From contig JASHNQ010000072.1 of the NCBI GenBank assembly GCA_030041545.1, positions 21,921 to 85,920 of the forward strand: a DNA stretch of 64,000 nucleotides. Direction: 5' to 3'. Below, one piece after another: positions 22,539-38,983 of the stretch (position 1 is its first letter; each line of letters starts with the position of its first letter). The notes beneath the pieces are model-generated. The model did not search any database. It saw nothing but the letters and a program-made list of their open reading frames with translations, and was not told the origin of the DNA. The translations under genes were made by a program, and so were the position numbers. The stretch is from a candidate division FCPU426 bacterium. Its GTDB lineage: Bacteria > Oederibacteriota > Muellerivitia > Muellerivitales > Muellerivitaceae.

Positions 22539-22587
22539 TGGTGCGCCTGGAGGGATTCGAACCCCCAACCTACTGATCCGTAGTCAG
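22539..22587. repeat. Attachment-site direct repeat (displaced tRNA-Arg 3' end), left junction
   Basis: tggtgcgcctggagggattcgaacccccaacctactgatccgtagtcag identical to 37953..38001. Confidence 0.95.
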
Positions 22588-22651
22588 ACGGTTCAAACAT
22601 TCCAGCCTCACCGAACTCCTTCAAAAAACATTACAGCACAACAACTTCCGA

Positions 22652-23761
22652 CTACTTGGCTCCCGATAGGGAGGGATGATTTTCCACGCGTGTCATATCC
22701 GTGTCAATCAAACTTTCCGCTTTTTGAAGAGCCATCTTCCGGTCTTTCCTATCCACCCTGTCGTACTTCCTAAAAACGGCGTAGGTTTTATGACCGCTGA
22801 TGCTCATCGTCACGTTATCGGGAACACCGGCCTTCCTGAAGTTCGTTATCGCGCAATGCCTCAAGTCGTGGAACCTGAAATCCTCAATCCCCGCCCTGAA
22901 GCAAGCCTTCTTGAAGGCCGTCTTGATGGTGCCAATCGGCTTTCCCTTGAAGGTAAAGGCATAAGGGCTTCCCAAGGTCTTTGGAATCCGTTGGAGGGTA
23001 TCCACCAGCCCCTCGCTCAACGGCACTTCCCGTTTCTCCTGGGTCTTTGTGTCGGCGGCCTCCAAGGCGATCACCCCGGCCTTGAAGTCCACCTGCTCCC
23101 ACCTCAAGCCCAAAATCTCCCCGCACCTCATACCCGTTGAATAAGCCAACTGGACTATGGGGCGCAAGTGGCGGGAACAGTTCGCCAACAACGCCTGGTA
23201 TTCCTCCGCCGCCAGGGTCCGCTCCCTGGATTGCTCCTTGAAGCGGGTTATCCCCTCAATCGGGTTACGGTCAATCTGCCTGTTTAAGAGGGCCCTTTTG
23301 ACAAGGGTCTTCAGGCAGGCTATATCCCGGTTTAAGGTCGCCCCCGTGATGGCTTTTCCAGGGCGAAGCTTATGCCCTTCCTTCCGCCTTTGGACCAAGT
23401 AAGCCTCTACCAAGTCCGGCGTCAAACTTTCCAAGGGCCGGTCCCCAAAATAGGCCTTCAGCCTCGCCACGATCTGAGCGTCGTTCTTGTGGCTCCTCTT
23501 CCTGGCCGCTGAATAGGCCAGGAAAGAATCCGCCGCCTCCAAGAAAGTGGCTTTCGGCTTGTCGGAAGCAATGAACTTCTGCTCCACGATGGCCTGCATT
23601 TGCTGAGCCAATACCTTCTTGGCTTGCGCCAAGGGTATCTGCCCCAGCCGGACCCTTACCCTTTTACTGATTCCCCCTTCCAAGACGAAATAGTCCAGGA
23701 AGTAGCCCCGCCCGTCCTTTCGCAAGTGGTGGGGCAATCCGTGAACATTAGGTTTACTCAT
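22652..23761 (-). CDS. int: Tyrosine recombinase (site-specific integrase)
   Basis: AYSTGMRCGEILGLRWEQVD, FRFHDLRHCAITNFRKAGVPDNVTMSISGHKTYAVFRKYDRV. Confidence 0.95.
   Translation of the reverse strand: MSKPNVHGLPHHLRKDGRGYFLDYFVLEGGISKRVRVRLGQIPLAQAKKVLAQQMQAIVEQKFIASDKPKATFLEAADSFLAYSAARKRSHKNDAQIVARLKAYFGDRPLESLTPDLVEAYLVQRRKEGHKLRPGKAITGATLNRDIACLKTLVKRALLNRQIDRNPIEGITRFKEQSRERTLAAEEYQALLANCSRHLRPIVQLAYSTGMRCGEILGLRWEQVDFKAGVIALEAADTKTQEKREVPLSEGLVDTLQRIPKTLGSPYAFTFKGKPIGTIKTAFKKACFRAGIEDFRFHDLRHCAITNFRKAGVPDNVTMSISGHKTYAVFRKYDRVDRKDRKMALQKAESLIDTDMTRVENHPSLSGAK
22689..22706. promoter_or_regulatory. Candidate integrase arm-type site, left end
   Basis: cgtgtcatatccgtgtca; near-identical copy at 37791..37808. 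Confidence 0.4.
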
Positions 23762-24009
23762 GACTGCCTCCTAATGTCCCCAGCACCAGGCATTTTACCA
23801 GCACCCTCCGCCAAATATGGAAGAGGTTTTTGGAAAAGGCGGTAAAACTCCGAGAGCCACACCCTGGGATATTTGCCGACCTTGACGAATGGCAAGACGC
23901 CGGTCTGCCGCCAATACCGGACGGTATTGACCGGTACTTTGGCCCTCTCGGCCACCTCCTGGTCGCTCATCAAGTGGTTGCGACGCTCACCCTTCCTACG
24001 CTCGGTCAT
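23758..24009 (-). CDS. AlpA/excisionase-like helix-turn-helix protein
   Basis: MSDQEVAERAKVPVNTVRYWRQTGVLPFVKVGKYPRVWLSEFYRLF; ATG overlaps next to integrase start. Confidence 0.8.
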   Translation of the reverse strand: MTERRKGERRNHLMSDQEVAERAKVPVNTVRYWRQTGVLPFVKVGKYPRVWLSEFYRLFQKPLPYLAEGAGKMPGAGDIRRQS

Positions 24010-24416
24010 ATCGCCCCTCCTTGAATATGGAAGATTGAATAAAAGGGGCCACCGGCCCCACCCTCGGGGAAAGGTGTGGAAAACCCCGCATGAAAGACCT
24101 GTCCATCCATGGACAGGTTTAATGGGGGGTGTTCCACGGTGTTGTTGTTGCCGTTGACTTTGACTTTCGCTTTTTCTGTATCCTTGAATCTTTTTTCCTT
24201 CGCCTCCGCGCCCGCGCCTTTGGGGTTGAGTCTGTCCAAGAGGCCAGACCCCACTACCGCTTTCCTGGTCATCATTACTGATCCAGGGGGAGTGGGGTCT
24301 GGCGTCGCAGGACAGGCGAAACCCCATCTTTTGCGGGCGTTCCGGCCTTTTTCCGCTTTAAGCAGGTTAAAGCTCCGCTTAAAGTTCATGGGTTGTGCCT
24401 CCCTGCTTCTCGTCAC
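24006..24416 (-). CDS. Hypothetical protein (low support)
   Basis: Open frame between flanking element genes, overlapping both; no recognised domain. Confidence 0.35.
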   Translation of the reverse strand: MTRSREAQPMNFKRSFNLLKAEKGRNARKRWGFACPATPDPTPPGSVMMTRKAVVGSGLLDRLNPKGAGAEAKEKRFKDTEKAKVKVNGNNNTVEHPPLNLSMDGQVFHAGFSTPFPEGGAGGPFYSIFHIQGGAI

Positions 24417-25278
24417 TTGTTGAGGGGGCTTTTAAGATGGGGTCTTTCACGAATGGCAGGTATTCCGCTTCCAGGTTTACCCATGGCACCCGGATAAAGG
24501 GGAAGGTGGCTGCCTTTCCGAAAAAGGAAAAGCCCCAAAGGTCCTTCTGCCGGGCATCCCCCTTGAGGTAGGCCGCTATGCCCTCTAACAGCCTGACGGC
24601 CTGGTTCTTGTCCCGACTGACTACCAGCCGGTAAACCTCCGGGAAATCACGGTTGAGGTTCAAGACCATGGCCGCCATCTTCTGCCGGTTGTAGGGGCTG
24701 TGCTCGTATTCCAGGACAAAGGCATGGGGTTGGCCTTCTAGGGTTGCCTTGAAGTAAGCGTCGGGGGTTCTCTGGTTGAGCCGGTGCAGCTTGGTTCCGG
24801 CCAAGTCCCATCCCCGGCCTTCCTCCAAGGCCCTCTTCCAGGACATCTTCAGGCCGCACCTCATCTCGTAGTCCGAAAGCCAGGTCAAGCCCTCCAAGGC
24901 GGGGTCCGCTTCCAGGTGGATTCGGAGTTCCAGGAGCCTCCGGTCGTGCTCCTTCTCCAAGGGATTGATCCGGGGGGAACGGACCTCCGACGAAACGAGT
25001 ATCCGGGCTAGGCCGGATAACTGGTGCAGGGCGGGCCGGGAAAGGTAGAAATAGGTGTCCTCGTTGGGGAGCTTTTGGGTTTTCAACAGCAGGCCTTTGG
25101 CTACCAGCTCCCTCAAATGCACGCAGGCCGTGACGTAGGATTGGCCGGGGTGGAACTTCTTGTGAAACAACTTGGTGGTGATGAACTTGTTGGAATGGAT
25201 ATAGGCCAAAAGCTGGATTTCGGAAGGTTCCAAGTCCGGGGTCTTTGGGTTGGGAAGAGGGGTGGTGGGTTGGGTCAT
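24379..25278 (-). CDS. Replication-relaxation family-like protein (winged helix)
   Basis: EIQLLAYIHSNKFITTKLFHKKFHPGQSYVTACVHLRELVAKGLLLKTQ..YLSRPALHQL; coupled to TraG-like gene. Confidence 0.65.
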   Translation of the reverse strand: MTQPTTPLPNPKTPDLEPSEIQLLAYIHSNKFITTKLFHKKFHPGQSYVTACVHLRELVAKGLLLKTQKLPNEDTYFYLSRPALHQLSGLARILVSSEVRSPRINPLEKEHDRRLLELRIHLEADPALEGLTWLSDYEMRCGLKMSWKRALEEGRGWDLAGTKLHRLNQRTPDAYFKATLEGQPHAFVLEYEHSPYNRQKMAAMVLNLNRDFPEVYRLVVSRDKNQAVRLLEGIAAYLKGDARQKDLWGFSFFGKAATFPFIRVPWVNLEAEYLPFVKDPILKAPSTSDEKQGGTTHEL

Positions 25279-27056
25279 TGGTCCTCTCCCATCCGGCTTC
25301 CGGCCTTGGCCGTCTCCTTGGGTTCGGTAGGAATGTTCGGCAGGGAGCTTTCATTCTCCTTTTCCCGGTAGTCCCAAGGGACTAGGACTTCCCTGGGGCT
25401 GAAGCCTTCCGGGGCCGTGGCCGCCGCCCTCAAGTCCGTCTTGAAGATATGGACGCCGCCGTCGGCCACCACCTTGACGATGGCCTGGCCGGCCCTAAGT
25501 TCCTTGAACAGGTTGGGGTGGAACCGGAACTTCTCCACCGGCGGCTTGGAAAAGCCCAAAATCTCCCCCTGCTTGCCAAAGCTCTCCACCCGGTAGTCCT
25601 TGTCCGGTACGGTCCCGAATTGCCGTGCAAAGGATTCCGCCGTGTCCGGGTCGTTGACCCTAAGGATGATCTTGTTGCTGGCCGTGTTCATCACCTGTTC
25701 CTGGAACTCCGGGGAGACGCCTTTCAAGTCACCCAAGGACTGGTGGGCCAAGAAGAGGTTCACCTGGGCTTCCCGGCACTTATTGATGAAGTCGATGAAC
25801 CGGGGATAGGCCAGGTTATAGAACTCGTCCAGGAAGACCCGGAAAGGCTTCTCCGGGGGTGTGGCGTACCTGTCGGCCAGTTGCTCGGCCAAATCCATCA
25901 TGGCGAGGATGGAAAACGCCTTGGCGTCCTCTGGGTAACGGGCGAAGTTGGGGGAGAAAAGGAAGACTTCCCCCTTCGCCACCACGTCCCTCATTCGGAT
26001 GCCCGGCTTGCGGACGTTCAAGAGATAGGCCCATTCGCTGTTGCAGAAACGTTGGAGCTTGTTGATGAGCCCGGTCAACTCCATCCGGCGGTCCTTAGGC
26101 GGCTTGCCAAGCCACTGTTCCCGGAAATACCGGGCGTAGGACGTTTGGGGATACCTGGAACAAAACCAACTAATGGTCCTGAAACTGTCGGTTTCCTGAG
26201 TTGCCGTAAGCAGGTCTTGGAAGGTGATGGTTTCGATCCCTTCCTTCAAAAGCCCGATGAGGTTGTGCAGGAAGGCGTCGGCCAGTTCCAGGTAGTAGGT
26301 CTCGGTGGTCTTGGCGTTGTAGAAAAGCGCGGTGAAGGCCCGGTTGGCGATGGCGTCCGCGTTGTCCCCATAAAGGGGGTTGTAGTCGTTGGACTGGCGG
26401 GGGTTGATAAGGTTGAAGTGCTTGAGCCTGCGGCCAGCGGCTTGGCTGACGTAAAAGGCAACATCTTGGAGCATGTTGCCTTTTACGTCGCTGATGAAAC
26501 ACCCCAAGTCCTGCCGGACGGTCTGCTCGATGAAGGGCTTGATGACGAAATGGGTTTTGCCGGTGCCTGTTCCGCCGATGATTTGGACGTTTTCGTGGAG
26601 GGAGGAGGTCGGCAGGCCCCGCCCCTTCTTGGGGGCCAGCTTGAGGAGATAGGGGCCGTAGTCCACCCTTCTCTTCTTAGTGGGCTTATAGAAGAGGAAA
26701 AACAAGCCAAGGCCGCTTACGATGAAAACCGAAACAACGTAAAGCTTGTTGAAGATTGGGAAGAAGAAATCGAGGACGGAAACCGCCATGGTGGGGCAGA
26801 CGGCCACTTTGGTCGTGATGAATATATTCTCACTCTGGCCGAACAAGAGAATGAGGAGATATGGAAGGGCGAAAACCAATATCACAGGCCCAATGATGTG
26901 GTGGTTGACCACATCCGGGTCCGGGAAGGTTCCGTCTATTCCATAGACCCCGAAAAAGGGCCACAGGTAGTTGCATGCGATTAAAACGTAAGGGGCCGCC
27001 AAGACCAGCAAAATGCCTTGATTGAGGCGCTCCCAGTCTTTCTTATCGAATTCCAT
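25275..27056 (-). CDS. VirD4/TraG/TraD-like conjugative coupling ATPase
   Basis: VQIIGGTGTGKTHFVIKPFIEQ Walker A, FRVFLDEFYNLAYPRFIDFINKCREAQVNLFLAHQSLGDL, N-terminal TM segments. Confidence 0.88.
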   Translation of the reverse strand: MEFDKKDWERLNQGILLVLAAPYVLIACNYLWPFFGVYGIDGTFPDPDVVNHHIIGPVILVFALPYLLILLFGQSENIFITTKVAVCPTMAVSVLDFFFPIFNKLYVVSVFIVSGLGLFFLFYKPTKKRRVDYGPYLLKLAPKKGRGLPTSSLHENVQIIGGTGTGKTHFVIKPFIEQTVRQDLGCFISDVKGNMLQDVAFYVSQAAGRRLKHFNLINPRQSNDYNPLYGDNADAIANRAFTALFYNAKTTETYYLELADAFLHNLIGLLKEGIETITFQDLLTATQETDSFRTISWFCSRYPQTSYARYFREQWLGKPPKDRRMELTGLINKLQRFCNSEWAYLLNVRKPGIRMRDVVAKGEVFLFSPNFARYPEDAKAFSILAMMDLAEQLADRYATPPEKPFRVFLDEFYNLAYPRFIDFINKCREAQVNLFLAHQSLGDLKGVSPEFQEQVMNTASNKIILRVNDPDTAESFARQFGTVPDKDYRVESFGKQGEILGFSKPPVEKFRFHPNLFKELRAGQAIVKVVADGGVHIFKTDLRAAATAPEGFSPREVLVPWDYREKENESSLPNIPTEPKETAKAGSRMGEDQ

Positions 27057-27109
27057 AACCTAGCTTTCTTTGAGGAAACCCACCCCACCCCCGGCGGTTT
27101 CCCGCCAGG

Positions 27110-27316
27110 TCAGGGGTTGGGGGGAGTCCTCCAATTCGTTTCGTGGCGCTTCTCGGCCCAATAATGGTCTATGGCCCTGCGGATCAACTCCGTCCGGCTA
27201 AGACCCGTATCCCTCTGCCGCCTCTCCAAGAGTTCCACTTCCTGCGGCGTAATGCGAAGGATGATCCTCAAGCCGCCTAAACTTTTGCGTCCACGCTTTT
27301 GTTTCTTCATGGGCAT
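27110..27316 (-). CDS. Ribbon-helix-helix (CopG/MobC-like) protein
   Basis: LRIILRITPQEVELLERRQRDTGLSRTELIRRAIDHYW. Confidence 0.7.
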   Translation of the reverse strand: MPMKKQKRGRKSLGGLRIILRITPQEVELLERRQRDTGLSRTELIRRAIDHYWAEKRHETNWRTPPNP

Positions 27317-27441
27317 GACATTATTCCTTTCGTTCTAAAACGTCAAAGAAAACCGTATGTATATCGTACATCTGTTTTTAAAAATTGAATTGTTTTTTAA
27401 AAGGATTTAAAAGTTGAAAGCTGGAATTTCGTACATAGGAA

Positions 27442-27945
27442 TTAATTTTTTTGAAAATAAATATTCTTACTTTGATTCTTCATAGCTTTTTGTAGTTGGT
27501 CAGGCGCTTGTTTATTTTTCAATGGATTCAAAATATTTGGGCGCCTTTTATGCTTCTCAACAATTTTTTCAATCACAATGGATAAATCTCTTTTGATTTG
27601 ATGATCCCAAATCCTTAAAACTTGCCAACCCATTCTTCTGAGCTTTCTGAAATTTCTTTGGTCTCTTAGACGGTTTCCTGATATTTTTTTGCGCCAAAAG
27701 GGTTTTAAATTTTTAGCCCACTCTGAAAACCGATACCCATGCCAAAAGTCACCGTCAATGAAAACAGCTAACTTGATTGGGGGGAATACTATGTCAGGAT
27801 TTCCGGGGATATTATTGACATGTTTTTTGAATCGCAGGCCGCATTTGTGAAGGGCTGCTTGGACCAAGAGTTCGGGTTTTGTGTTTTTTACTCGAATCTT
27901 GGACATACAATAACTTCTTTGGGCGGGGGTCAAATTGTCCGGCAT
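27442..27945 (-). CDS. vsr: Very short patch repair endonuclease (Vsr family)
   Basis: LTPAQRSYCMSKIRVKNTKPELLVQAALHKCGLRFKKHV..PDIVFPPIKLAVFIDGDFWHG..WQVLRIWDHQI. Confidence 0.95.
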   Translation of the reverse strand: MPDNLTPAQRSYCMSKIRVKNTKPELLVQAALHKCGLRFKKHVNNIPGNPDIVFPPIKLAVFIDGDFWHGYRFSEWAKNLKPFWRKKISGNRLRDQRNFRKLRRMGWQVLRIWDHQIKRDLSIVIEKIVEKHKRRPNILNPLKNKQAPDQLQKAMKNQSKNIYFQKN

Positions 27946-27951
27946 AACAAC

Positions 27952-28986
27952 TCAGGTGTAAGCTTTAATGTGTGTCATTAAAAATGAAGCCTGTTTCTGG
28001 GCCATCAATGGTGGTAATGCTTCTCCAATCATTGAGGTAATTGCAGTGCGTCCTAAAGTTGTAGAAAACTTATAAGATTTCGGAAAAGTTTGAATTAAAG
28101 CGGCTTCATATGGACTTATCGCACGATTTTGGCTGGGATGTAAAAATCTGCCTTTTGATGGATTACTACAAAACCTCGTTATTGTTGGAGCCACATTATC
28201 CCATTTCATTCGGCCATAAACATCACGGAAACCGCTTTTTAATTTTTTGTGGCAATTTAATTGTTTGTCTCGGCCTAGTGAGGAACGACTTCCACCGTTT
28301 TTTGGAATCGATCTAATTCTTTTTAAGACTTCATCATTATGCTTTGCCAAAAGTTTATGAAGAGGTATCCGACTAATTTCTGGCCTGGGTAATTTCCCAA
28401 TAACATCTCTTACATTTTTGCGGTTTTCTTTAATTAGAGGAATAGATATAGGCCCTAAACGTGATCCCATCAATATCATCCTTTTCCTTCTTTGCGGTAC
28501 CCCATAATCCGCTGCGTCTACTATTTCCACTGCGGTTTTATAGCCGAGAACTTCCAGCGTTTTTCTTGCTTTCGTTAATCGCCAATTGCTCTTCAAGCCG
28601 GGGACGTTTTCGATCATGATTGTTTTAGGAAAAAGTTCGTCGGCCAAACGCATGAATTCAAAAATTAACTTATTACGTGGGTCTTTAGCGGGTTTTGATT
28701 TGTTCTTGGTGGTCATTTTTGAAAAACCTTGGCAAGGGGGGCACCCTGCCAAAAGATCCAATTCACCGCGTTTGATATTTAAGGATTTAAAAATATTTTT
28801 CGATTTGGTCTTTTTTATATCGTCAAACAAAAAAACATTAGTGTGATTTAAGCGATAGACATTTTGGGCTGTTTCGTCAATTTCAACGCCAGCCAAAACA
28901 TTAAATCCAGCGGTCTTAAGACCCGTAGTCAATCCACCACAACCCGAAAAGAGGTCAATGGCAGAGTATTTTCTTTTTATAGTCAT
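27952..28986 (-). CDS. DNA (cytosine-5) methyltransferase
   Basis: AIDLFSGCGGLTTGLKTAGF, LLAGCPPCQGFSKM, MIENVPGLK, GVPQRRKRMILMGSR. Confidence 0.96.
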   Translation of the reverse strand: MTIKRKYSAIDLFSGCGGLTTGLKTAGFNVLAGVEIDETAQNVYRLNHTNVFLFDDIKKTKSKNIFKSLNIKRGELDLLAGCPPCQGFSKMTTKNKSKPAKDPRNKLIFEFMRLADELFPKTIMIENVPGLKSNWRLTKARKTLEVLGYKTAVEIVDAADYGVPQRRKRMILMGSRLGPISIPLIKENRKNVRDVIGKLPRPEISRIPLHKLLAKHNDEVLKRIRSIPKNGGSRSSLGRDKQLNCHKKLKSGFRDVYGRMKWDNVAPTITRFCSNPSKGRFLHPSQNRAISPYEAALIQTFPKSYKFSTTLGRTAITSMIGEALPPLMAQKQASFLMTHIKAYT

Positions 28987-29010
28987 TTAGTCACTTCAAA
29001 ATTTGTTTTT

Positions 29011-30957
29011 TTAAACTGCAAAAGCGAATGCGTAACGTCCACTTGGAAACCTTATTTGTGGCCACCATGATGCTTCTTGTCCTTCTCCTGTTTGAGTTCT
29101 AAGCAAGAACAATGTGATTTTATCTCCGGGGACTTTTCCCGCTTCTCCTCCATCTAGAATGCCCTGGGTTTCGCGTCGGTTTTCCTTAATACCACGATCC
29201 CGGTCAACATAAACATAACCATTTTCTTGGTTATGAAGGATGGAAAATTTAACAAGCGACTCGCCAACGGCAACCGGGTCCCAAATTTTTTCAGACACCC
29301 TTTGGTCCGGCATTGTAAGAGCTATTATTTCTTTTAACATTTCAACGGGTATTTCGGAAAATTGTTTGTTTGAAACATTCTTCAAAATATCGTTGATTTT
29401 TTCGGTGGCCGATTTAACCGAATCGTCCCGCACAACTTGTGCAGGATTATAAATGCCGCCGCCTGAATAAATGCCAATAGCGCCCGGAGCCAAAACATTA
29501 CGCCTCGTTGGATTAAGGTTGTTTTCTAAATAAACCCCTCGAAATTCTTCGGTTGGGTGACGCGCAATTAAGTCGCGTAATCCATTTTCCATATTATTAA
29601 TCGCTCTAAAAACCACATGTAAAACTGGTGGTAGGAATAGTCTAAGTAAGCCAATGTCTTTTCTGCGGTAACCGTACATACGCGCATGTTGAAGCACGGT
29701 ATCAGCCTGTGGTTTTTGAGGATGGCGGCCATAATAACTGACGAGCAAATTTTTAATGGTTACACCGCGCCCAAGCTTGTTTCCTCCAACAAAAAGATTA
29801 TATGGAGATTTAACCGCCACATCTTCATCGGAGTCTCCATTGACGAGTTTCACAGAAATGCCCGGCGAGAAAAACCCGATGGCTTTAACCAAGTCTTCAA
29901 AGTTTGAATTTTTTAAATCGGAGTGAGTTGAAGAAAGGTCTTCGTAAGCTTCTCTTAATCTTTCGATGGTTGCTCGGTGGTTGTTTTTAACACCGTCACT
30001 TAAATCCATTTTGTACTGCCTTAGAAGATTTACGATGTGCTTATGATCGTCCCTTCGCAGGCTCACATGGCAAAGGAAGGCGCAATTCTGATCTGCTTCC
30101 TTTTTTCTTTTATATGTCGCTCCAATCATGAATGAATCTAAAGCTCTTTCGAGTGATTTTGGAATTTGAAGAGTTGGCGCTGGTTGCGGGCCTGGAGCCA
30201 AAACGGCTATATCGTTAATATCGAATTCTCTGACAAGATTAGTATCGTCTCCAAAAAAATCGTTCCCGCCGACATAATCGGAACCGGGATGACTTAAAAC
30301 GGTAAATTTTGGTCGAAAGTCATGCGTTGGAGTTTGGAGGAAAAGTGCTTGGGGTGTCGCTGTTACTTGTAAGTATGTATTTTTTTCAAAAAAATTCCTC
30401 AACTGACTAATTTGTTCGTTTATTGCACTTCGAGTTCCATCGGCAAGGCGTTCACGTGTGTTCAAGCTGGCTTGATCCGCTTCATCATCTATGATTAAAC
30501 AACTGAGACCCTTAAGCCGCCCCAACCTAAAATTTTCATTTATGTCTGTAAGCATCCTTACGTTTTTAGTTGTTACAATTGCGCATGTACTGCCTTTAAT
30601 GCGCCTCAAGAATGCCTCTGAATCTTTAAAATCTTTTTTCCCAATAACATCCATGCCGGGGAAGGATTCTTGAATTCGACCTAAGGTTTGTTGATAAAGG
30701 GGGTCTATATCAGAGGTCAGTATGATTATTGTTTTGTATCCTTCATCTGCGCCAATCGCTCCCGTTGCACTTAGAACGCCTGTTTTTCCACTTTGAACCA
30801 AACCATAAATAAGGCCATTTATATCTTCCTTACCACCGCTTAAAGGATTCACCCATTTCTCCGCCACTTCCTTGGCAGTATTCCTGATATCTTTAACTTC
30901 CTCTTCATTACCTATCTGCTTCTTCAAAAGTTCTATAACTTGATCGATGTGATTCAT
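29011..30957 (-). CDS. Z1-domain (superfamily 2-like) ATPase
   Basis: NGLIYGLVQSGKTGVLSATGAIGADEGYKTIIILTSDIDPLYQQTLGRIQESF, LSCLIIDDEADQASLN, VGGNKLGRGVTIKNLLVSYYGRHPQKPQADTVLQHARMYGYRRKD. Confidence 0.9.
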   Translation of the reverse strand: MNHIDQVIELLKKQIGNEEEVKDIRNTAKEVAEKWVNPLSGGKEDINGLIYGLVQSGKTGVLSATGAIGADEGYKTIIILTSDIDPLYQQTLGRIQESFPGMDVIGKKDFKDSEAFLRRIKGSTCAIVTTKNVRMLTDINENFRLGRLKGLSCLIIDDEADQASLNTRERLADGTRSAINEQISQLRNFFEKNTYLQVTATPQALFLQTPTHDFRPKFTVLSHPGSDYVGGNDFFGDDTNLVREFDINDIAVLAPGPQPAPTLQIPKSLERALDSFMIGATYKRKKEADQNCAFLCHVSLRRDDHKHIVNLLRQYKMDLSDGVKNNHRATIERLREAYEDLSSTHSDLKNSNFEDLVKAIGFFSPGISVKLVNGDSDEDVAVKSPYNLFVGGNKLGRGVTIKNLLVSYYGRHPQKPQADTVLQHARMYGYRRKDIGLLRLFLPPVLHVVFRAINNMENGLRDLIARHPTEEFRGVYLENNLNPTRRNVLAPGAIGIYSGGGIYNPAQVVRDDSVKSATEKINDILKNVSNKQFSEIPVEMLKEIIALTMPDQRVSEKIWDPVAVGESLVKFSILHNQENGYVYVDRDRGIKENRRETQGILDGGEAGKVPGDKITLFLLRTQTGEGQEASWWPQIRFPSGRYAFAFAV

Positions 30958-30982
30958 CGGTTCCTTCTTTCAATCAATTCGA

Positions 30983-31399
30983 TTAGACAAATAAAATTGC
31001 CGGCCAACCACTCACCGGCACCTTACCAGGAAGAACGCCTTTTGACCCGGCCACGGCAAAGCATTTGTTGAATCCTCTTTTAATCGATATCCATTTTGTA
31101 GTCTCATCGAAAAATTCACCCATCTCCCCCCAATTCACGGCACAAATTCCATCGCCGCCACAAACAAAAGCGAGGTACATTTTTTCACATAAATCGACGC
31201 ACTGTTGGAGCTTGGTAATTTCTTCTCCCGTAAAAATGAATCTCCAAGGTGATCGATTTTTTGTCGTGTATTTTAAAAAAAATAATATTTCGTTGTTAAC
31301 CAAATAACCATTCTCGAATTTGTGCACACTTTGACAACGTTTATCGTCCAGCAAGTGAATAAGAGCCACACCATGATAAAAATCATGTTTTTTGATCAT
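30983..31399 (-). CDS. Hypothetical protein of defence cassette (138 aa)
   Basis: ATG overlaps the stop of the HNH gene (4 bp) in a co-directional cluster; no recognised domain. Confidence 0.7.
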   Translation of the reverse strand: MIKKHDFYHGVALIHLLDDKRCQSVHKFENGYLVNNEILFFLKYTTKNRSPWRFIFTGEEITKLQQCVDLCEKMYLAFVCGGDGICAVNWGEMGEFFDETTKWISIKRGFNKCFAVAGSKGVLPGKVPVSGWPAILFV

Positions 31400-32199
31400 T
31401 TTCTTCTCGCCTGGATGATTTTAATTAAATCTTCCACAGGGACAATCGTCCCATGCTTTCGATGAACCATACTATGGCAATTTGAACAAAGAGGAACCAA
31501 ATCAGATTTAGGGTCAATAGAAACCATTCCCGCGGACAACTGTTTCAAGTGATGAATCTCAATATAACCTCTGGCTAATTCGTTCCCATAAAACAGATCA
31601 AAATCGAACCCACAAGCCTTACATTTTGTTCCATGAATTAAAATCGCATTTGTTCGATTTTCCGGGTTCCTTTCATAAGAGTAATGCTTCCTCAAAATCT
31701 TTTTGCCTTCTTCCTTCGGAAGGAATTCGGAATCTCTATCTCCATGAGTTTCAAGTTCAGTGATCAAAGCCGATTTTGAAATGATAGAACTTCTTTTTGT
31801 TTGGAAAGAAAACCTACTAGGTTTTTCATTCTCAAGAAAATACTTTAAAAGTCTGATTGGCCCAAAATAAGTAAAAGATGAATGGTGTTTTTCCCGAAAA
31901 AAGAGGTAAAGTCCATCTTTGGTTTTTGAAGTATTAATGATTCTTTGATCGTTCGCATGGTTAGTTTCGCCTTCAATATGCAAAATGTCCCCGTCAAAAT
32001 AATCGTTGTATTGAGTTAGCTTTTCTTGCTTTTTCTGGGTGATAAAAAGAATTAATTTGTTATCCCCCTTTGGGGTAAAAATTCCTCTGGCAATAGCATT
32101 GGAGGCTCCATAACCCCAAATTTTTGCAAGATATGGCCTATCATAATTTTCACCGACAATGAGACTGTTCAGATGGACGGTTGCTTTCATGATTTCCAA
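31396..32199 (-). CDS. HNH endonuclease with N-terminal DUF3427/SRA-like domain
   Basis: LILFITQKKQEKLTQYNDYFDGDILHIEGETNHANDQRI..GLYLFFREKHHSSFTYFGPI followed by CKACGFDFDLFYG..YIEIHHLKQLS..DLVPLCSNCHSMVHR. Confidence 0.88.
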   Translation of the reverse strand: MEIMKATVHLNSLIVGENYDRPYLAKIWGYGASNAIARGIFTPKGDNKLILFITQKKQEKLTQYNDYFDGDILHIEGETNHANDQRIINTSKTKDGLYLFFREKHHSSFTYFGPIRLLKYFLENEKPSRFSFQTKRSSIISKSALITELETHGDRDSEFLPKEEGKKILRKHYSYERNPENRTNAILIHGTKCKACGFDFDLFYGNELARGYIEIHHLKQLSAGMVSIDPKSDLVPLCSNCHSMVHRKHGTIVPVEDLIKIIQARRK

Positions 32200-32354
32200 A
32201 ATTTATTCTTTCTCCGACCTTTTTATATTTTAGCTCCTGCCACTTTAATAAACTTGCTTCATTTTTCAGAGATGAGTTTGGGGTGGGGTGCAGGGGAGGG
32301 AACACCCTACCCTGCCGGACGCAAAAAGGCCTCTTGGGGAAAGGGGCCTGGCTT

Positions 32355-32849
32355 TTAGTACAAAAGCCCGGCTTGGCGGAAGGAGAAATAGCCTTCGTGG
32401 GTCACGATCAAATGGTCATGGACCGTGATGCCCATTGCCCTGGCGGCGGTCATGATCTGGCGGGTTAACTGCTTGTCCCCCTCGGATGGTTCCAGGCTTC
32501 CGGCAGGGTGGTTGTGGCTGAAAATAATGCCGGTTGCGTCCAATTCCAGAGCCTTCTTCAAGACCTCGCGGGGATAAACTGCGGTGTGGTCAACCGTGCC
32601 TTCCTGGTTTAAAACCACGTCTAAAACATGGTTCCGGTGGTCAACGTACATGGTCACAAAAGCTTCGTTCCGTTTCCCGCCGATATACTGCTTGAAGTAC
32701 GCGACCACTTCATCCGGGCTTCCCATGACCGGCCCCCGCTGGTAGTCCGCCCTGGCTTCCGCCCAAGAAACCGGTGGCACGGTTGGGGGCGGCAACTCCT
32801 TCACGTTGAATTTCAGTCGGTCCTTCTTTGTTTCATCACTCATTGCCAT
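32355..32849 (-). CDS. RadC-like JAB-domain protein
   Basis: YVDHRNHVLDVVLNQEGTVDHTAVYPREVLKKALELDATGIIFSHNHPAGSLEPSEGDKQLTRQIMTAARAMGITVHDHLIV. Confidence 0.93.
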   Translation of the reverse strand: MAMSDETKKDRLKFNVKELPPPTVPPVSWAEARADYQRGPVMGSPDEVVAYFKQYIGGKRNEAFVTMYVDHRNHVLDVVLNQEGTVDHTAVYPREVLKKALELDATGIIFSHNHPAGSLEPSEGDKQLTRQIMTAARAMGITVHDHLIVTHEGYFSFRQAGLLY

Positions 32850-32964
32850 GCTCCTTTACCAGGAGCAGCCTCCGGGGCCGCCCCTCGAAGAGGAAAGGGG
32901 CGGCCATGGAGGAGAGGCCAAATAGGAAGAGCTAGCGGACTATTGGCCCAATAATGTTTTCGAG

Positions 32965-33072
32965 TTTTCCGACGGAGTGCGAAAGCGAAGCGATAGCATC
33001 CGAGGCCTGGTGCCCCGGACACGGTCTAAGGGTCCGAGGGCAAGCCACTGGTGGCTAAGGCCGTTCGGAAAA
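32965..33072. other. Structured non-coding segment inside the element (candidate oriT or RNA)
   Basis: Outer arms TTTTCCGACGG / CCGTTCGGAAAA enclosing inner palindromes CGGAC..GTCCG and GCCACTGGTGGC; high GC in AT-rich surroundings. Confidence 0.45.
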
Positions 33073-33142
33073 ATTAGGAAAACAAAAAAAATTAAAATTT
33101 TTAATAAAAAAGCCTGATATCTTTGTCTTGATTCCTTCTGAT

Positions 33143-34252
33143 TCAATTAACCGTTTTCGATTTAAATTCCACGTATTTCTTCGAAAGAATTTCAAAACAT
33201 CTTGTCATATTTCCACCATCATTTGGGCTTCTGCTAAATGATTGATAATTCGAAAGGTCCTGATCAATCTTCGCAATTTCATCTCGCGTAGCATTAACAC
33301 CTTTTTTTAGAATCGCATTATTTTTTCTTTTCATTTCATCAAAATATCTCAAAAAATTTCTAAGCTGTTTATTATCATCACCCAAATTCCGTTTTATTAA
33401 CCAATAATACCAAATTAGTGGGCCTTGGGAGTTAAGTAGCGGGTCCCCTTTTTGAAATACCTTAGTCATCCTGTTTAACATTCTTCCAACAGTACGATAA
33501 ATATCAACCCAATGGCGGAGTTGGGACTTCTCAAAATCTTGAGGCTCTAGAGTTTCCTCAACTAGACGATCTAAATTTCTTTTTTTCATATCAACAAATC
33601 TTCCATGAGTTTCTAGTAATAGCATCTTTGCAACAGCATTTGATTCCTGCATTCGTTGTATATTAAATTTTATGTTGAATTTAAAAAATTTGTGCTTGGA
33701 AAGCTTTTGGATCATTCTTGTAGCCCTTGAAATCGTAGCGTTCCTAATTTCTGCTCCAACCAAAGCTTTTGAAGTTTTATTTAAACGAATGAACATATCA
33801 TTTATTCTTTCCTGTTCATCCGTAATAACCCTCATAACTGAAATTTCATATTCTTCGATTCTCCTTGCGATTTCCGGGTATTGGATTTTTAAAGTTGAAT
33901 AATTTAATCCACCAATTTGTAAGTTGGCATTGTCGGATAGTAAAAAATCTTTTGCCAACTCCAACTTATTATCAAAGAACGCAAAAATAGTTTCGAATCG
34001 TTGTTTACCGTCGATAACTGAAAACATTTTTTTCCCAGAATCTCGTGGCGAAATACCATAAGTGTTATCAGCAAGATAAAATTTAGGAATGTCATAATCA
34101 TTAAGAATTGAATCAATCAAATATTTCTTTTCTGCTGATTTCCAAATATTTCCTTTTCTTTGAAAAACTGGTGCTAAATCAATATTTTTTTGTTGGTATT
34201 GGCTATACCACCAAGTAAGCGGTTTGAGGGGGAAGAGTTTTACTTTGAACAT
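33143..34252 (-). CDS. DUF262 (ParB-like/GmrS-like) domain protein
   Basis: WWYSQYQQKNIDLAPVFQRKGNIWKSAEKKYLIDSILNDYDIPKFYL, FSVIDGKQRFETIFAFFDNKLEL. Confidence 0.88.
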   Translation of the reverse strand: MFKVKLFPLKPLTWWYSQYQQKNIDLAPVFQRKGNIWKSAEKKYLIDSILNDYDIPKFYLADNTYGISPRDSGKKMFSVIDGKQRFETIFAFFDNKLELAKDFLLSDNANLQIGGLNYSTLKIQYPEIARRIEEYEISVMRVITDEQERINDMFIRLNKTSKALVGAEIRNATISRATRMIQKLSKHKFFKFNIKFNIQRMQESNAVAKMLLLETHGRFVDMKKRNLDRLVEETLEPQDFEKSQLRHWVDIYRTVGRMLNRMTKVFQKGDPLLNSQGPLIWYYWLIKRNLGDDNKQLRNFLRYFDEMKRKNNAILKKGVNATRDEIAKIDQDLSNYQSFSRSPNDGGNMTRCFEILSKKYVEFKSKTVN

Positions 34253-34255
34253 ATT

Positions 34256-35137
34256 TTAAACCTCCACCTTAAACCCAAAATCTCTTCTCATTTCATTTGC
34301 TAACCCGTGTAAATCTGGATAAACAAATGAATCCGTAAAACCAATTGAATAAAGATTTTTAAAAATAGAATCTATGTTTTTATTTTTGATCAACACTTTA
34401 TATAAAAGTTCGTCGTGTTTTCTAATCCCCTTGCCTTTAATTTGCTTTTCCATAGGAAGCACATCTTTTCCAAAAATTACAAACATCCCTTTTTGAACCG
34501 AAATACGTACATTGTTGTGAATGCCCCATAATGCAATTGGATGCATGTTCATGGCTCTTCTAAGGGTGGGATCCACCACAACATAATTATCCAAAGCTGG
34601 ATCGCCAACTGACAAAACACCACCTTTATAGCCTTGAGATTTGAGGACCCAACGGTTCCATTTGACCGCATTCAAAACCCATACGGCTGCATCACATTTT
34701 AAATCATATTTTTCATTTTTCTTTTTCGCCTCTGACAAAGCAAAAAAAAGAGCAACATATGGATTTTGGGTCCAATCTAATAATCGAGTTGGCATTCCCC
34801 AATGTTGCATAAAAAATAAACAATCCAATACATCCCTAGATTTTTCATTTGAAAAATTTGTTCCTGTTGGGAAAAAAGGGGTTCCAAGCTCTACGAATTT
34901 TTTTATCATCTTTTCTTCTTTATCTAACAAGTTACCGTAATCTTTCTCAGTGGGATGACGAAACAAACCGGGTATCAATTCATATAAAGAATCACCAACC
35001 CCGCGGTAACAGAACATGTCATTATCACCATTAACATTTGCCAAATTAAATTCAACTAATTTGGTGTATTCCTCCATGTTGGATATTTCTTCTGGAGGCA
35101 CTTTGGGTTTAGTTGGATGTTTTCGGATAGTCTTCAT
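34256..35137 (-). CDS. FRG-domain protein
   Basis: MFCYRGVGDSLYELIPGLFR, FFMQHWGMPTRLLDWTQNPYVALFFALSEA. Confidence 0.92.
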   Translation of the reverse strand: MKTIRKHPTKPKVPPEEISNMEEYTKLVEFNLANVNGDNDMFCYRGVGDSLYELIPGLFRHPTEKDYGNLLDKEEKMIKKFVELGTPFFPTGTNFSNEKSRDVLDCLFFMQHWGMPTRLLDWTQNPYVALFFALSEAKKKNEKYDLKCDAAVWVLNAVKWNRWVLKSQGYKGGVLSVGDPALDNYVVVDPTLRRAMNMHPIALWGIHNNVRISVQKGMFVIFGKDVLPMEKQIKGKGIRKHDELLYKVLIKNKNIDSIFKNLYSIGFTDSFVYPDLHGLANEMRRDFGFKVEV

Positions 35138-35144
35138 AAAAACC

Positions 35145-36257
35145 TTAGTTAGAAAGAATTATGTCCATTTCGCCAGGTTTCGGGGATTTGTCACCGAACA
35201 AAGCGGTTTGGGTTGGCCCTGAAAAAGGGCGCTTTAATATTTTCATTTTTTTCTTTGGAAAAATATCTTTTAAAATTTCTTTTGTGGTTTGGAATGTAAA
35301 AGGTCTAGCATCTGTTCGCACATAAATATTTGCGTTCTTTTTTAACAGTTTTGCTGAATTTTCAAAAACTGTTTGAAGCAAAACTTTGTAATCTTCCTTT
35401 GAAGAAAATTTTCTGGCCCAATGATTATCCAAACTTCTTGGTCTTTTGAAACCTCCGAGCATCCAAAGACGCAACCATTGATCGTAATGATAATTTGTTA
35501 CTTCATAATATGGTGGCGAAGTGAATAAAAGGCCTACCTTTGGCCCAGAAAATCTAGCGACCCTTTTTAAAAGCTTAGTGCTATCTCCCAATAACATTTG
35601 ACTATTTTTATCTTTTATTATTCCTTTTGAATATCTCCATTTAATTCTTTGAGCAAGGAATTTCATTACGTCTATGTGGGGAGGTGTTTTCCCTTTGCTT
35701 TTCCACCAACGGATAGAGTAATCAGGGCTTAACGCTTTCCCCTGGCGCATTTGATTGGAAAATGAATCCCATTCCTTGCCATGCAAATAAACCAATATTA
35801 AAGACATCAATGTTGCATCAGCTTTTCTCGTCTTCCACTTTAAAATTTTGCGGGCTGTAATTAAAAAATCAAATACCGATTGGGAATAACACAATTTAAA
35901 AAATTCATCTCTATAAGCTTGTGCCCCACGACTTTGTTTAAGAACTTTCCCCAAACTTTTAAAAACCAAATTTTCTGAAGCTGGGCAAAGCTTTGTTTTT
36001 CCGTAAAGCCAACCGACGGGGTTAATTTCTATTCCAACCCCTTTTCTACCCAAAACTGATGAAGCAAAAACGCTTGATCCTCTACCCGCAAAAGGGTCCA
36101 AAACCCATTCTTCCTTATTGGAATATTTTTTTACTACCTCTTTTGCAAATGAAAAAGGAAACATTGCATAGTAAGGCCCAAGTCCAGCCCATCTGTTTTC
36201 AGGATTTTCAAAGCTACGCATTTCCATAGTTTTATAATTATCCAATAAATCTTTCAA
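35145..36257 (-). CDS. Site-specific DNA methyltransferase (amino-methyltransferase, TSPPYY motif)
   Basis: WVLDPFAGRGSSVFASSVLGRKGVGIEINPVGWLYG and VGLLFTSPPYYEVTNYHYDQWLRLW. Confidence 0.92.
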   Translation of the reverse strand: MKDLLDNYKTMEMRSFENPENRWAGLGPYYAMFPFSFAKEVVKKYSNKEEWVLDPFAGRGSSVFASSVLGRKGVGIEINPVGWLYGKTKLCPASENLVFKSLGKVLKQSRGAQAYRDEFFKLCYSQSVFDFLITARKILKWKTRKADATLMSLILVYLHGKEWDSFSNQMRQGKALSPDYSIRWWKSKGKTPPHIDVMKFLAQRIKWRYSKGIIKDKNSQMLLGDSTKLLKRVARFSGPKVGLLFTSPPYYEVTNYHYDQWLRLWMLGGFKRPRSLDNHWARKFSSKEDYKVLLQTVFENSAKLLKKNANIYVRTDARPFTFQTTKEILKDIFPKKKMKILKRPFSGPTQTALFGDKSPKPGEMDIILSN

Positions 36258-36375
36258 TTAAAAGAGTTAAATAAAGAACCAGAGTTCATTATCAGAAAAA
36301 AGTTTGAACTTTGTGTTTCGTCTAAAGTATGGGCGATTATTTCACAAAATTCGGTCACTTAATTTTAAGAGTTTG

Positions 36376-36461
36376 GGGCTTGGGGCGAAGCCCCAGGAGA
36401 AGGGGGTGTGCCGAGGATCGGCAAAGCCAGCCGAGGCCAGGGGGAAGGCCTTCCCCCCAAA
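36376..36461. other. GC-rich palindromic non-coding segment
   Basis: ggggcttggggcgaagcccc, gtgccgaggatcggca, ggggggaaggccttcccccc-type stems. Confidence 0.4.
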
Positions 36462-36464
36462 AAC

Positions 36465-36599
36465 TCATTCTTTAGAAACCTTTATGGCTCCTTTGATTAA
36501 AAGAAGTTTCAGTTTTTCTTGGCGTTTTTTCAAATCTTCTTTTGATAAAGGGACAAGGCGTATCTCGACCGGCAGTTTTTTTAATTCCCGCTTTTTCAT
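36465..36599 (-). CDS. Small hypothetical protein (44 aa), low support
   Basis: MKKRELKKLPVEIRLVPLSKEDLKKRQEKLKLLLIKGAIKVSKE. Confidence 0.35.
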   Translation of the reverse strand: MKKRELKKLPVEIRLVPLSKEDLKKRQEKLKLLLIKGAIKVSKE

Positions 36600-36692
36600 A
36601 AAAATTTAACCATTTGAAAAATAAAAGGCTCCCCGGCATTTCGGGAACCACATAAGTTGGAATTAATTTTGGTGGGGTGGGGTTTCAGGCCC

Positions 36693-36944
36693 CTACATTA
36701 GCCCTTCGAAAAAGCTATTGACGCAATTCGGGTCCAACTGGAAGAGTTCCGCCATGCGCTTGACCGGATTACGCTGGATATGAGGGTCATGCTCCTTTTT
36801 TGAACCCCTGGGCAGGGCAAAAACCTTTCCCTCATAGGTGATTAAATTGCTGTGAGTGCTTTCCCTTTTAGTGGCCTTTCCACCGGCGCACTTCTTGAGC
36901 ATCTCGTATATCTCACTTAACCTAACCTGGCCTTTTGGACCCAA
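36693..36944 (-). CDS. HicA-like toxin (putative)
   Basis: THSNLITYEGKVFALPRGSKKEHDPHIQRNPVKRMAELFQLDPNCVNSFFEGL; 2 bp from HicB-like gene. Confidence 0.55.
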   Translation of the reverse strand: MGPKGQVRLSEIYEMLKKCAGGKATKRESTHSNLITYEGKVFALPRGSKKEHDPHIQRNPVKRMAELFQLDPNCVNSFFEGLM

Positions 36945-36946
36945 TA

Positions 36947-37447
36947 TTAGGCTGCCGTGGCGTATTCGAACTCAGGGTTGTCCGTAGGAGAAGGGGACCA
37001 ATTCTTCTGTGCGTCCAGTCGGACGCAATGAATGACCCTCGCCGGGGCGTCTTCGGTGATTTTATCGAGGTTGGAAAAGGGGCCGTCCGGCTTCAAGGAG
37101 CCGGAACGGATTGCATTCCGGGTCTCGGTCCAAATGGCGGCCTGGGCCTTGTTCTCGGTCAAAATAAAACTATCGACCGATTTTTGAAACTCGTTGAAGT
37201 TACCCGCGGCCACGGCTAAGTCTTCCAAAACTCCCCGGAAGAACTCGCGGAAGTTCAAATAAGCCTCTTGGGGGGTGGCCCCTTCTTGGGCGATGCCGCC
37301 GGGGCTCACGCCGTTCAACCACCACTCGCTGACCCCATCCTCTTTTTCCTCGACCATGAGCACGCGGCCTTCGATTTGCACGCCAGCCAAAAAGCCTGGC
37401 CCGGCGATCATGTCTTTGAATTTAAAAATCAATGGATAGGAATTCAT
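36947..37447 (-). CDS. HicB-like antitoxin (putative)
   Basis: MNSYPLIFKFKDMIAGPGFLAGVQIEGRVLMVEEKEDGVSEWWLNGVSPGGIAQEGATPQEAYLNFREFFRG. Confidence 0.55.
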   Translation of the reverse strand: MNSYPLIFKFKDMIAGPGFLAGVQIEGRVLMVEEKEDGVSEWWLNGVSPGGIAQEGATPQEAYLNFREFFRGVLEDLAVAAGNFNEFQKSVDSFILTENKAQAAIWTETRNAIRSGSLKPDGPFSNLDKITEDAPARVIHCVRLDAQKNWSPSPTDNPEFEYATAA

Positions 37448-37790
37448 GGGGGGCTCCCGCTCTATGCTTACCTAACGTTCAAGCTACCAACTTCTTTAAT
37501 GATTGTCCACAGGTGGAAAACAAGGGGGTAAACATAGTCAATCGCTAGGGTTAAGTCAATCCTATTCCCCCAAGGCCTGGTTTTCAGGCACCTTTTTGTC
37601 AGCCTAACATCCATCGTTTTAAGGGGCTTCCAAGGTCACTACATAGGGATCATTAACCGTCCTTTTCTCAAGCAAAGACAAAAGCTTGATTAGCGATGCT
37701 GGTCGGTTTTGTAAAATCGAAATTTTTCGTTCTTCTTAGACCCATTGACTGAAAGCCATTTCCCTAAAGCAACTGACTTTTTGTCTTATC

Positions 37791-37808
37791 CGTGTCATAT
37801 ACGTGTCA
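37791..37808. promoter_or_regulatory. Candidate integrase arm-type site, right end
   Basis: cgtgtcatatacgtgtca, near-identical to 22689..22706; followed by cttgaccgtcgccaac/tttgaccgtcaccaac direct repeats. Confidence 0.4.
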
Positions 37809-37952
37809 AACTCAACCGTCAAAATCGGGTCTTGACCGTCGCCAACGGTCTTTGACCGTCACCAACAAAAAAGGCCTCTGCTTGCTCCGGTCTTTAAAAC
37901 CGTTGCAAACAAAGGCCGATTAAAACGCGCTGGGGACTGTTAAATTTTAAAG

Positions 37953-38029
37953 TGGTGCGCCTGGAGGGATTCGAACCCCCAACCTACTGATCCGTAGTCA
38001 GTTGCTCTATCCAGTTGAGCCACAGGCGC
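37953..38029 (-). tRNA. tRNA-Arg (ACG), encoded CCA; integration target
   Basis: GCGCCTGTGGCTCAACTGGATAGAGCAACTGACTACGGATCAGTAGGTTGGGGGTTCGAATCCCTCCAGGCGCACCA. Confidence 0.95.
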
Positions 38030-38320: not shown

Positions 38321-38572
38321 GTGAATCGCAAAACATCAGGTTCCATAGCCGTTCTTCATGGCGGCGTACTTTCATTACCCGCCTCTTTTAAACGGCAATT
38401 GAGGACGAAAACCGGCCGTGCCTTCCTGGTGGAAGAACATGGAAACAACTTGCTCTTGAAACCCTTCGAAATTGAACTGTATTCCAACGAACAAATCGCC
38501 CGCTGGAAAAAAGAAGGACGCCTGACACGACGGGGAACGGCCGCCCTCCGCAAAAAAATCCTCAACCATTAA
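38321..38572 (+). CDS. AbrB/MazE-like antitoxin (putative)
   Basis: GSIAVLHGGVLSLPASFKRQLRTKTGRAFLVEEHGNNLLLKPFEIELYS; 6 bp upstream of PIN gene. Confidence 0.7.
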   Translation: MNRKTSGSIAVLHGGVLSLPASFKRQLRTKTGRAFLVEEHGNNLLLKPFEIELYSNEQIARWKKEGRLTRRGTAALRKKILNH

Positions 38573-38578
38573 GAAGAA

Positions 38579-38983
38579 ATGAGGATTTTCCTCGACGCAA
38601 ACGTCCTTTTTTCCGCCGCTTACGACCCCCGGAGTTCCCATTACATCATTCTCCTAACAGGCCATGAAGCGGGCTGGGTTTTCATCACTTGCGATTGGGC
38701 TTGGTTGGAAGCGGAACGAAACCTCTTCCTTAAAAAACCTGCCGCCTTGCACAACTTAAGAATCCTCTCCCGTTGGGTTGAAACCATTCCGGCTGTTACG
38801 GAGGGAACCTGTCCTATTCATCTGCCCAATAAGGATAAGCCCATATTTCTCTCGGCGGTTCATGCCAACGCCACTCATTTGTTAACCGGGGATTATAAGG
38901 ACTTTGGCCCTCACATGAACAAACCGCACAAGACCCAGGGAATATGGATTCAAAGCACGGCCGATTTCTTAAATTCACTGTAG
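38579..38983 (+). CDS. PIN-domain toxin
   Basis: MRIFLDANVLFSAAYDPRSS..CDWAWLEAERNL..PIFLSAVHANATHLLTGDYKDFG. Confidence 0.85.
   Translation: MRIFLDANVLFSAAYDPRSSHYIILLTGHEAGWVFITCDWAWLEAERNLFLKKPAALHNLRILSRWVETIPAVTEGTCPIHLPNKDKPIFLSAVHANATHLLTGDYKDFGPHMNKPHKTQGIWIQSTADFLNSL

What the first reader, a model, noticed from the sequence alone, without database searches (positions are those of the whole stretch)
33143..36257. Candidate three-gene system: TSPPYY DNA methyltransferase - FRG - DUF262
Gaps of only 3 and 7 bp and the same strand indicate one operon. DUF262 proteins include DNA-targeting nucleases/NTPases (GmrSD-like), FRG is a poorly understood domain found in defence neighbourhoods, and the methylase could provide self-marking. 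I do not recognise this exact trio as a described system; the combination may be a novel restriction-type cassette.
Basis: inference. Interest (0 to 1): 0.85.

Follow-up and report, generated by a model that had tools for sequence, protein, structure and literature searches.

The report
FRG–DUF262 defence pair with methylase
Three adjacent genes on a mobile genomic island contain a widespread, apparently unnamed two-gene module (a predicted NAD-using toxin plus a nucleotide-sensing partner, probably for stopping phage infection), here joined by a DNA methylase that may mark the cell's own DNA.

Summary
The three genes are real: MTase, FRG and DUF262 on the − strand, gaps 7 and 3 bp. The conserved unit is the FRG–DUF262 pair, not the trio. 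In 77 of 80 genome loci found through the DUF262 gene, an FRG gene lies just upstream in the same order, usually overlapping or abutting it. The two proteins diverge in step (Mantel r 0.91). DUF262 keeps the NTP motif (DGKQR) and a ParB/sulfiredoxin-like fold but has no HNH/DUF1524 nuclease. FRG models confidently, and its best (weak) PDB matches are mainly ADP-ribosyltransferase-superfamily toxins. Relatives of this DUF262 pair with other effectors (HEPN, SIR2, OLD), including the tested systems PD-T4-2 and Menshen, so this looks like an effector-swapped relative. The methylase is an occasional partner: its 53%-identical counterpart makes the same trio in one other locus, C5 methylases make MTase–FRG–DUF262 trios in three prophages, and a homologue makes MTase–DUF262–HEPN. 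Most pairs have no methylase. The cassette sits in a 15.4-kb element integrated at tRNA-Arg that also carries a Dcm/Vsr/Z1/HNH cluster. No experiment was possible. Verdict: new variant of a known kind; the self-marking role of the methylase is plausible but unproven.

The parts
35145..36257 (-). DNA methyltransferase (N4/N6 type, permuted: DPFAGRG at 54-60 precedes TSPPY at 246-250); probable start ATG 36227
   Evidence: PF01555 2.2e-15; motif positions; 53% identical to the MTase next to FRG-DUF262 in L034
34256..35137 (-). FRG-domain protein, predicted ART-superfamily effector; family-invariant residues R45, G46, E74, H112, R118, D121, W122, R211, Q215, F219 intact (W43, near-invariant, is Cys here)
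   Evidence: PF08867 6e-21; PADLOC PDC-S15 5e-45; conservation; AF2 pLDDT 89.9; Foldseek
33143..34252 (-). Stand-alone DUF262 (GmrSD_N) protein, predicted NTP-binding sensor/regulator; D81-G82-K83-Q84-R85 motif intact; no DUF1524/HNH domain
   Evidence: PF03235 1.4e-17; NsnA (Menshen A) 4e-32 and PD-T4-2_A 1e-15; AF2 pLDDT 92.8; top Foldseek hits ParB CTPase domains and sulfiredoxin
22539..38001 (.). Integrative element carrying the cassette (15.4 kb from repeat to repeat, 45% GC against 58% outside; the cassette itself is 34.6% GC)
   Evidence: 49-bp perfect direct repeats at both ends and GC; empty site in sister genome G005
22539..22587 (.). att repeat, copy of the tRNA-Arg 3' end
37953..38029 (-). 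tRNA-Arg (acg), integration target; its 37953-38001 part is the other att copy
22652..23761 (-). Tyrosine integrase next to the att site
   Evidence: PF00589 8.4e-28
27442..32199 (-). Second candidate restriction cluster in the same element: Vsr (27442-27945), Dcm C5-MTase (27952-28986), Z1 ATPase (29011-30957), 138-aa unknown (30983-31399), DUF3427-like/HNH (31396-32199)
   Evidence: Pfam/PADLOC

Best explanation
The core is a two-gene intracellular defence (abortive-infection type) module. DUF262, a ParB/sulfiredoxin-fold NTP-binding protein without a nuclease, senses infection or foreign/modified DNA through its NTP-binding site and controls FRG. FRG, an ART-superfamily protein, is the effector and most likely consumes NAD+ or ADP-ribosylates a host or phage target, stopping growth and phage replication. 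In this locus a DNA methyltransferase is co-transcribed as an accessory; its most likely role, if it has one in the system, is to mark resident DNA so that DUF262 does not trigger. Shown here: gene order, the conserved pair, co-divergence, intact motifs, predicted folds, the mobile-element setting, and exchange of effectors around related DUF262 proteins. Inferred: co-transcription, sensing, ART/NAD chemistry, toxicity, anti-phage activity and the methylase's role.
For: FRG sits immediately upstream of DUF262 in 77/80 genome loci and 11/14 viral contigs, with a 4-nt overlap in 37 and 1-11 nt spacing in 32 of 87 non-redundant loci. Distances co-vary: Mantel r 0.91, largest of 2000 permutations 0.10. 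Invariant residues in both proteins. FRG top PDB matches include TreTu/TreX, MbcT, RES toxins, cholera-toxin A1-type and Arr ARTs, all weak. DUF262 matches ParB CTPase and sulfiredoxin. FRG is placed in the ART superfamily and suggested as a NADase by PMC9503650. Related DUF262 genes sit beside HEPN (L153, L143), SIR2 (L148, L150) and OLD/DUF3696 (L151, L155, L156). PD-T4-2 (HEPN+DUF262), Menshen and Dazbog are antiphage systems with DUF262 and no DUF1524; the DUF262 gene is required in Menshen and Dazbog (PMC10952713). FRG-linked DUF262 forms one clade (support 0.937), grouped with SIR2-linked ones.
Against: No assay of any kind. Foldseek E-values for both models are above 0.04, so the fold assignments are suggestive only. 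The scan was seeded with three FRG-linked DUF262 proteins, so 77/80 describes that clade, not all DUF262. A mobile-element addiction (toxin-antitoxin) module would show the same anatomy.
Confidence: 0.6

Rival explanations
1. Restriction-like trio: the methylase marks self DNA, DUF262 reads the mark's absence (or a foreign mark), and FRG kills or stalls the cell instead of a restriction enzyme cutting DNA.
For: The same trio with a 53%-identical methylase in L034, order FRG-DUF262-MTase, between metabolic genes and rpoB with no restriction enzyme near. C5-MTase–FRG–DUF262 in L013 (15 nt), L023 (13 nt), L014 (2 nt, plus Vsr) with no REase seen. MTase–DUF262–HEPN in L143. MTase–DUF262–helicase in L147. 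6 state changes for methylase linkage on the tree. GmrSD, BrxU and SspE use DUF262 in modification-dependent systems (PMC10952713).
Against: About 80% of FRG–DUF262 pairs have no linked methylase. The window-type methylase is absent from 39 of 40 searched genomes with these loci and also occurs alone in a phage contig (L107). An unlinked methylase could not be excluded.
Confidence: 0.3
2. FRG–DUF262 is a toxin–antitoxin or element-maintenance module, with DUF262 as antitoxin, whose benefit is retention of the integrated element.
For: Overlapping two-gene layout, toxin-like fold, integrative element and prophage locations. L042 has this DUF262 alone without FRG.
Against: DUF262 is a large protein with an NTP-binding motif, and in related tested systems it is needed for phage defence.
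Confidence: 0.2
3. FRG–DUF262 guards restriction-modification systems, firing when a phage inhibits them.
For: A C5 MTase lies within 4 genes in 15 of 87 non-redundant loci, with Eco29kI-type REase and Vsr in a clade, against roughly 1-2 PF00145 genes per genome.
Against: Defence islands cluster anyway; most pairs have no linked R-M system; many of the enriched loci form one clade.
Confidence: 0.1
4. The DUF262 protein is a GmrSD-like DNA-cutting enzyme.
For: PF03235 match and intact DGxQR motif; a nuclease role for the ParB/Srx fold has been proposed (PMC4619093).
Against: No DUF1524/HNH or other nuclease domain; the C-terminal half is a helical bundle.
Confidence: 0.07

Closest known systems
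PD-T4-2 (HEPN + DUF262)
   Same: Two genes: a DUF262 protein without DUF1524 plus a predicted toxic effector; window DUF262 matches PD-T4-2_A (1e-15)
   Different: Effector is FRG, not HEPN; the effector gene comes first; DUF262 lies in a different clade from the HEPN-linked ones
Menshen (PADLOC NsnABC)
   Same: Near full-length NsnA match (4e-32)
   Different: No OLD/DUF3696 (NsnB) or NsnC; FRG instead; different DUF262 clade. That Nsn = Menshen is my reading of the PADLOC names plus the gene content of L151
PDC-S15 (PADLOC FRG candidate)
   Same: FRG protein matches it (5e-45)
   Different: As I read the PADLOC name, a single-protein candidate; here FRG is tied to DUF262, and more distant FRGs in a 345-genome sample were not
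GmrSD / BrxU / SspE
   Same: DUF262 domain with DGxQR motif
   Different: No DUF1524 nuclease; separate ART-type effector
Type II restriction-modification
   Same: Carries a DNA methylase
   Different: No restriction endonuclease in the operon

Membership tests
Menshen | DUF262 protein (NsnA) | tested here: met
   NsnA 4.3e-32, near full length
Menshen | OLD/DUF3696 (NsnB) and NsnC partners | tested here: not met
   No NsnB/NsnC match among the neighbours scanned
PD-T4-2 | DUF262 + HEPN (PF18735) pair | tested here: not met
   Partner is FRG (PF08867); no HEPN match
GmrSD-type (type IV) restriction | DUF262 with (I/V)DGQQR-like motif | tested here: met
   IDGKQR, residues 80-85; D81, G82, Q84, R85 invariant in 86 aligned sequences
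GmrSD-type (type IV) restriction | DUF1524/HNH nuclease | tested here: not met
   No such match in DUF262 or its partners FRG and MTase
Type II R-M | Cognate methylase and endonuclease | tested here: not met
   Methylase present, no REase in the operon; a separate HNH/Dcm cluster lies about 1 kb downstream
FRG family (PF08867 / PDC-S15) | FRG domain with conserved RG and RLLDW motifs | tested here: met
ART superfamily | ART fold | tested here: inconclusive
   Recognisable best hits are mostly ARTs but E >= 0.09, TM <= 0.46; assignment also stated in PMC9503650
ART superfamily | NAD+-dependent activity | not testable with these tools
   needs biochemistry
FRG–DUF262 pair defined here | FRG immediately upstream of DUF262, same strand | tested here: met
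   3-bp gap; 77/80 loci

The most novel reading that the evidence does not exclude
A restriction-modification analogue without a nuclease: a DNA methylase marks self, a DUF262 NTPase reads DNA modification state, and an exchangeable toxin (ART-fold FRG here, HEPN in L143) shuts the cell down when unmarked DNA enters.
Probability: 0.28. Interest if true: 0.87.

Novelty: new variant of a known kind. Interest (0 to 1): 0.62.

Why it matters
It ties a broadly distributed (about a dozen phyla among the hits) orphan domain, FRG, to a defined partner, which makes its function testable as a pair rather than as a single gene. It also shows DUF262 as a shared sensor used with at least four different effectors. 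If the methylase link is functional, it would be a self/non-self system that couples DNA modification to cell shutdown instead of DNA cutting.

Tried and rejected
Trio as the universal unit: rejected, since methylases are linked in about 17 of 84 loci. DUF262 as a nuclease: not supported. Membership of Menshen or PD-T4-2: partners absent. Sequence search of PDB for FRG and DUF262: nothing significant. E. coli copy for easy testing: none found with the Sodalis pair as a DNA query. Own-order and own-phylum genome searches: only sister genome G005 had matches. Promoter scan: no better than shuffles. Burroughs & Aravind 2020 (PMC7685563), cited as reporting FRG as a potential immune effector, is not held, so an earlier mention of FRG next to a ParB/Srx-fold protein cannot be excluded.

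Full report
What is there. The − strand of 33143-36257 encodes, in order of transcription, a DNA methyltransferase (35145-36257), an FRG protein (34256-35137) and a DUF262 protein (33143-34252), separated by 7 and 3 bp. The methylase probably starts at ATG 36227 rather than the listed TTG, judged by its homologue. Its motif order is permuted: the SAM-binding motif DPFAGRG (54-60) precedes TSPPY (246-250). The SPPY form suggests N4-cytosine or N6-adenine methylation (general knowledge; not tested).

Setting. The cassette lies in a 15.4-kb integrative element. A 49-bp perfect repeat of the tRNA-Arg 3' end bounds it (22539-22587 and 37953-38001), a tyrosine integrase sits just inside (22652-23761), and GC falls from 58% outside to 45% in the element and 35% in the cassette. 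In the sister genome G005 the tRNA-Arg lies directly beside the same tRNA-Ser/tRNA-Ala/deaminase block with nothing in between, which is the empty site. The element also carries a TraD-like coupling protein and a Dcm–Vsr–Z1–HNH cluster.

The conserved unit. A genome scan seeded with three DUF262 proteins returned 80 loci; 77 have an FRG ORF directly upstream on the same strand, and 11 of 14 viral contigs do too. The exceptions are L042 (a DUF262 alone), L105 and L106. Of 87 non-redundant pairs, 37 overlap by 4 nt, 9 by 1 nt and 32 are spaced 1-11 nt. Record titles span Acidobacteria, Bacteroidetes, Chloroflexi, Planctomycetes, Verrucomicrobia, Actinobacteria, Bacillota, Campylobacterota, Nitrospirota, Proteobacteria and others. 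FRG and DUF262 distances correlate at r = 0.91 (permutation maximum 0.10), so the pair is inherited as a unit. Caveat: the seeds were FRG-linked, so this describes one DUF262 clade. In 345 genomes of one phylum, 32 had FRG genes, but among the 30 loci retrieved DUF262 was adjacent only in the clade member; FRG is therefore modular.

Proteins. FRG keeps R45, G46, E74, H112, R118, D121, W122, R211, Q215 and F219; near-invariant W43 is Cys in this copy. The model is confident (pLDDT 89.9). Its PDB matches are weak (best E 0.09), but ART-superfamily toxins (Rhs TreTu/TreX, MbcT, RES, cholera-toxin A1 type, Arr) dominate the recognisable ones, in line with the published assignment of FRG to the ART superfamily as a suggested NADase (PMC9503650). 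DUF262 keeps D81-G-K-Q-R85 and the second conserved stretch R156, N158, E168, R170; it has no DUF1524. Its model (pLDDT 92.8) best matches ParB CTPase N-domains and sulfiredoxin, again weakly.

Effector exchange. Related DUF262-only genes sit next to HEPN (L153, L143), SIR2 (L148, L150), OLD/DUF3696 with a third gene (L151, L155, L156; the L151 partners match PADLOC NsnB/NsnC, i.e. Menshen by name and content) or AAA (L154). PD-T4-2 is HEPN plus DUF262, and the DUF262 genes of Menshen and Dazbog are needed for defence (PMC10952713). FRG-linked DUF262 is one clade, grouped with the SIR2-linked ones and apart from the HEPN/Menshen group. Since SIR2 effectors consume NAD+, this fits an NAD-linked role for FRG, but only as an inference.

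The methylase. Its 53%-identical counterpart is in L034, where FRG-DUF262-MTase stand between metabolic genes and rpoB. It was not found in 39 other genomes with these loci, no comparably strong match turned up in 345 genomes of one phylum, and a 48%-identical one exists alone in a phage contig (L107). An unrelated C5 methylase precedes FRG–DUF262 by 2-15 nt in L013, L014 and L023 with no restriction enzyme seen. C5 methylases lie within four genes in 15 of 87 non-redundant loci, part of them a clade with Eco29kI-type R-M genes. Counting window and L034, 17 of 84 tree tips are methylase-linked with 6 changes on the tree against 15.7 for shuffled labels, so linkage seems to have arisen several times and was then kept. 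L143 is methylase–DUF262–HEPN. I read this as an optional but recurrent partner.

Conclusion. Best supported: a DUF262-sensor/FRG-effector pair of the PD-T4-2/Menshen kind with a new effector, mobile and probably anti-phage, with the methylase as an accessory that may mark self. Biological function is inference throughout. Prior mention in papers not held cannot be excluded.

Noticed in passing
27442-32199: Vsr–Dcm–Z1 ATPase–138-aa unknown–DUF3427-like/HNH cluster in the same element, a candidate restriction system of its own.
   Followed up: partly
22539-38001: Integrative element at tRNA-Arg with 49-bp att repeats, integrase, MerR-like HTH protein and TraD-like coupling protein; empty site in sister genome G005.
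   Followed up: yes
L148:3441-5343; L150:3483-5361: DUF262 followed directly by SIR2 on Sinorhizobium and Hymenobacter plasmids; looks like another effector-swapped pair, no name found.
   Followed up: partly
L143:2739-6317: Methylase–DUF262–HEPN operon with a homologue of the window's methylase.
   Followed up: partly
L144:1647-6019, L145:4453-8819, L146:998-5735: Same methylase family next to a HerA-like ATPase and a ~380-aa unknown protein in three genomes; a different recurrent cluster.
   Followed up: no
L042:6600-7652: DUF262 of this clade without FRG among metabolic genes; possible remnant after loss of the effector.
   Followed up: partly
L164:3169-3969: Sister genome G005 has a second, solitary FRG gene near metH.
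   Followed up: no
38321-38983 (+): Small AbrB-like plus PIN-like ORF pair just outside the element, resembling a toxin–antitoxin pair by eye; the second gave no Pfam match.
   Followed up: no
32355-32849 (-): RadC/JAB protein between the two defence clusters of the element.
   Followed up: no
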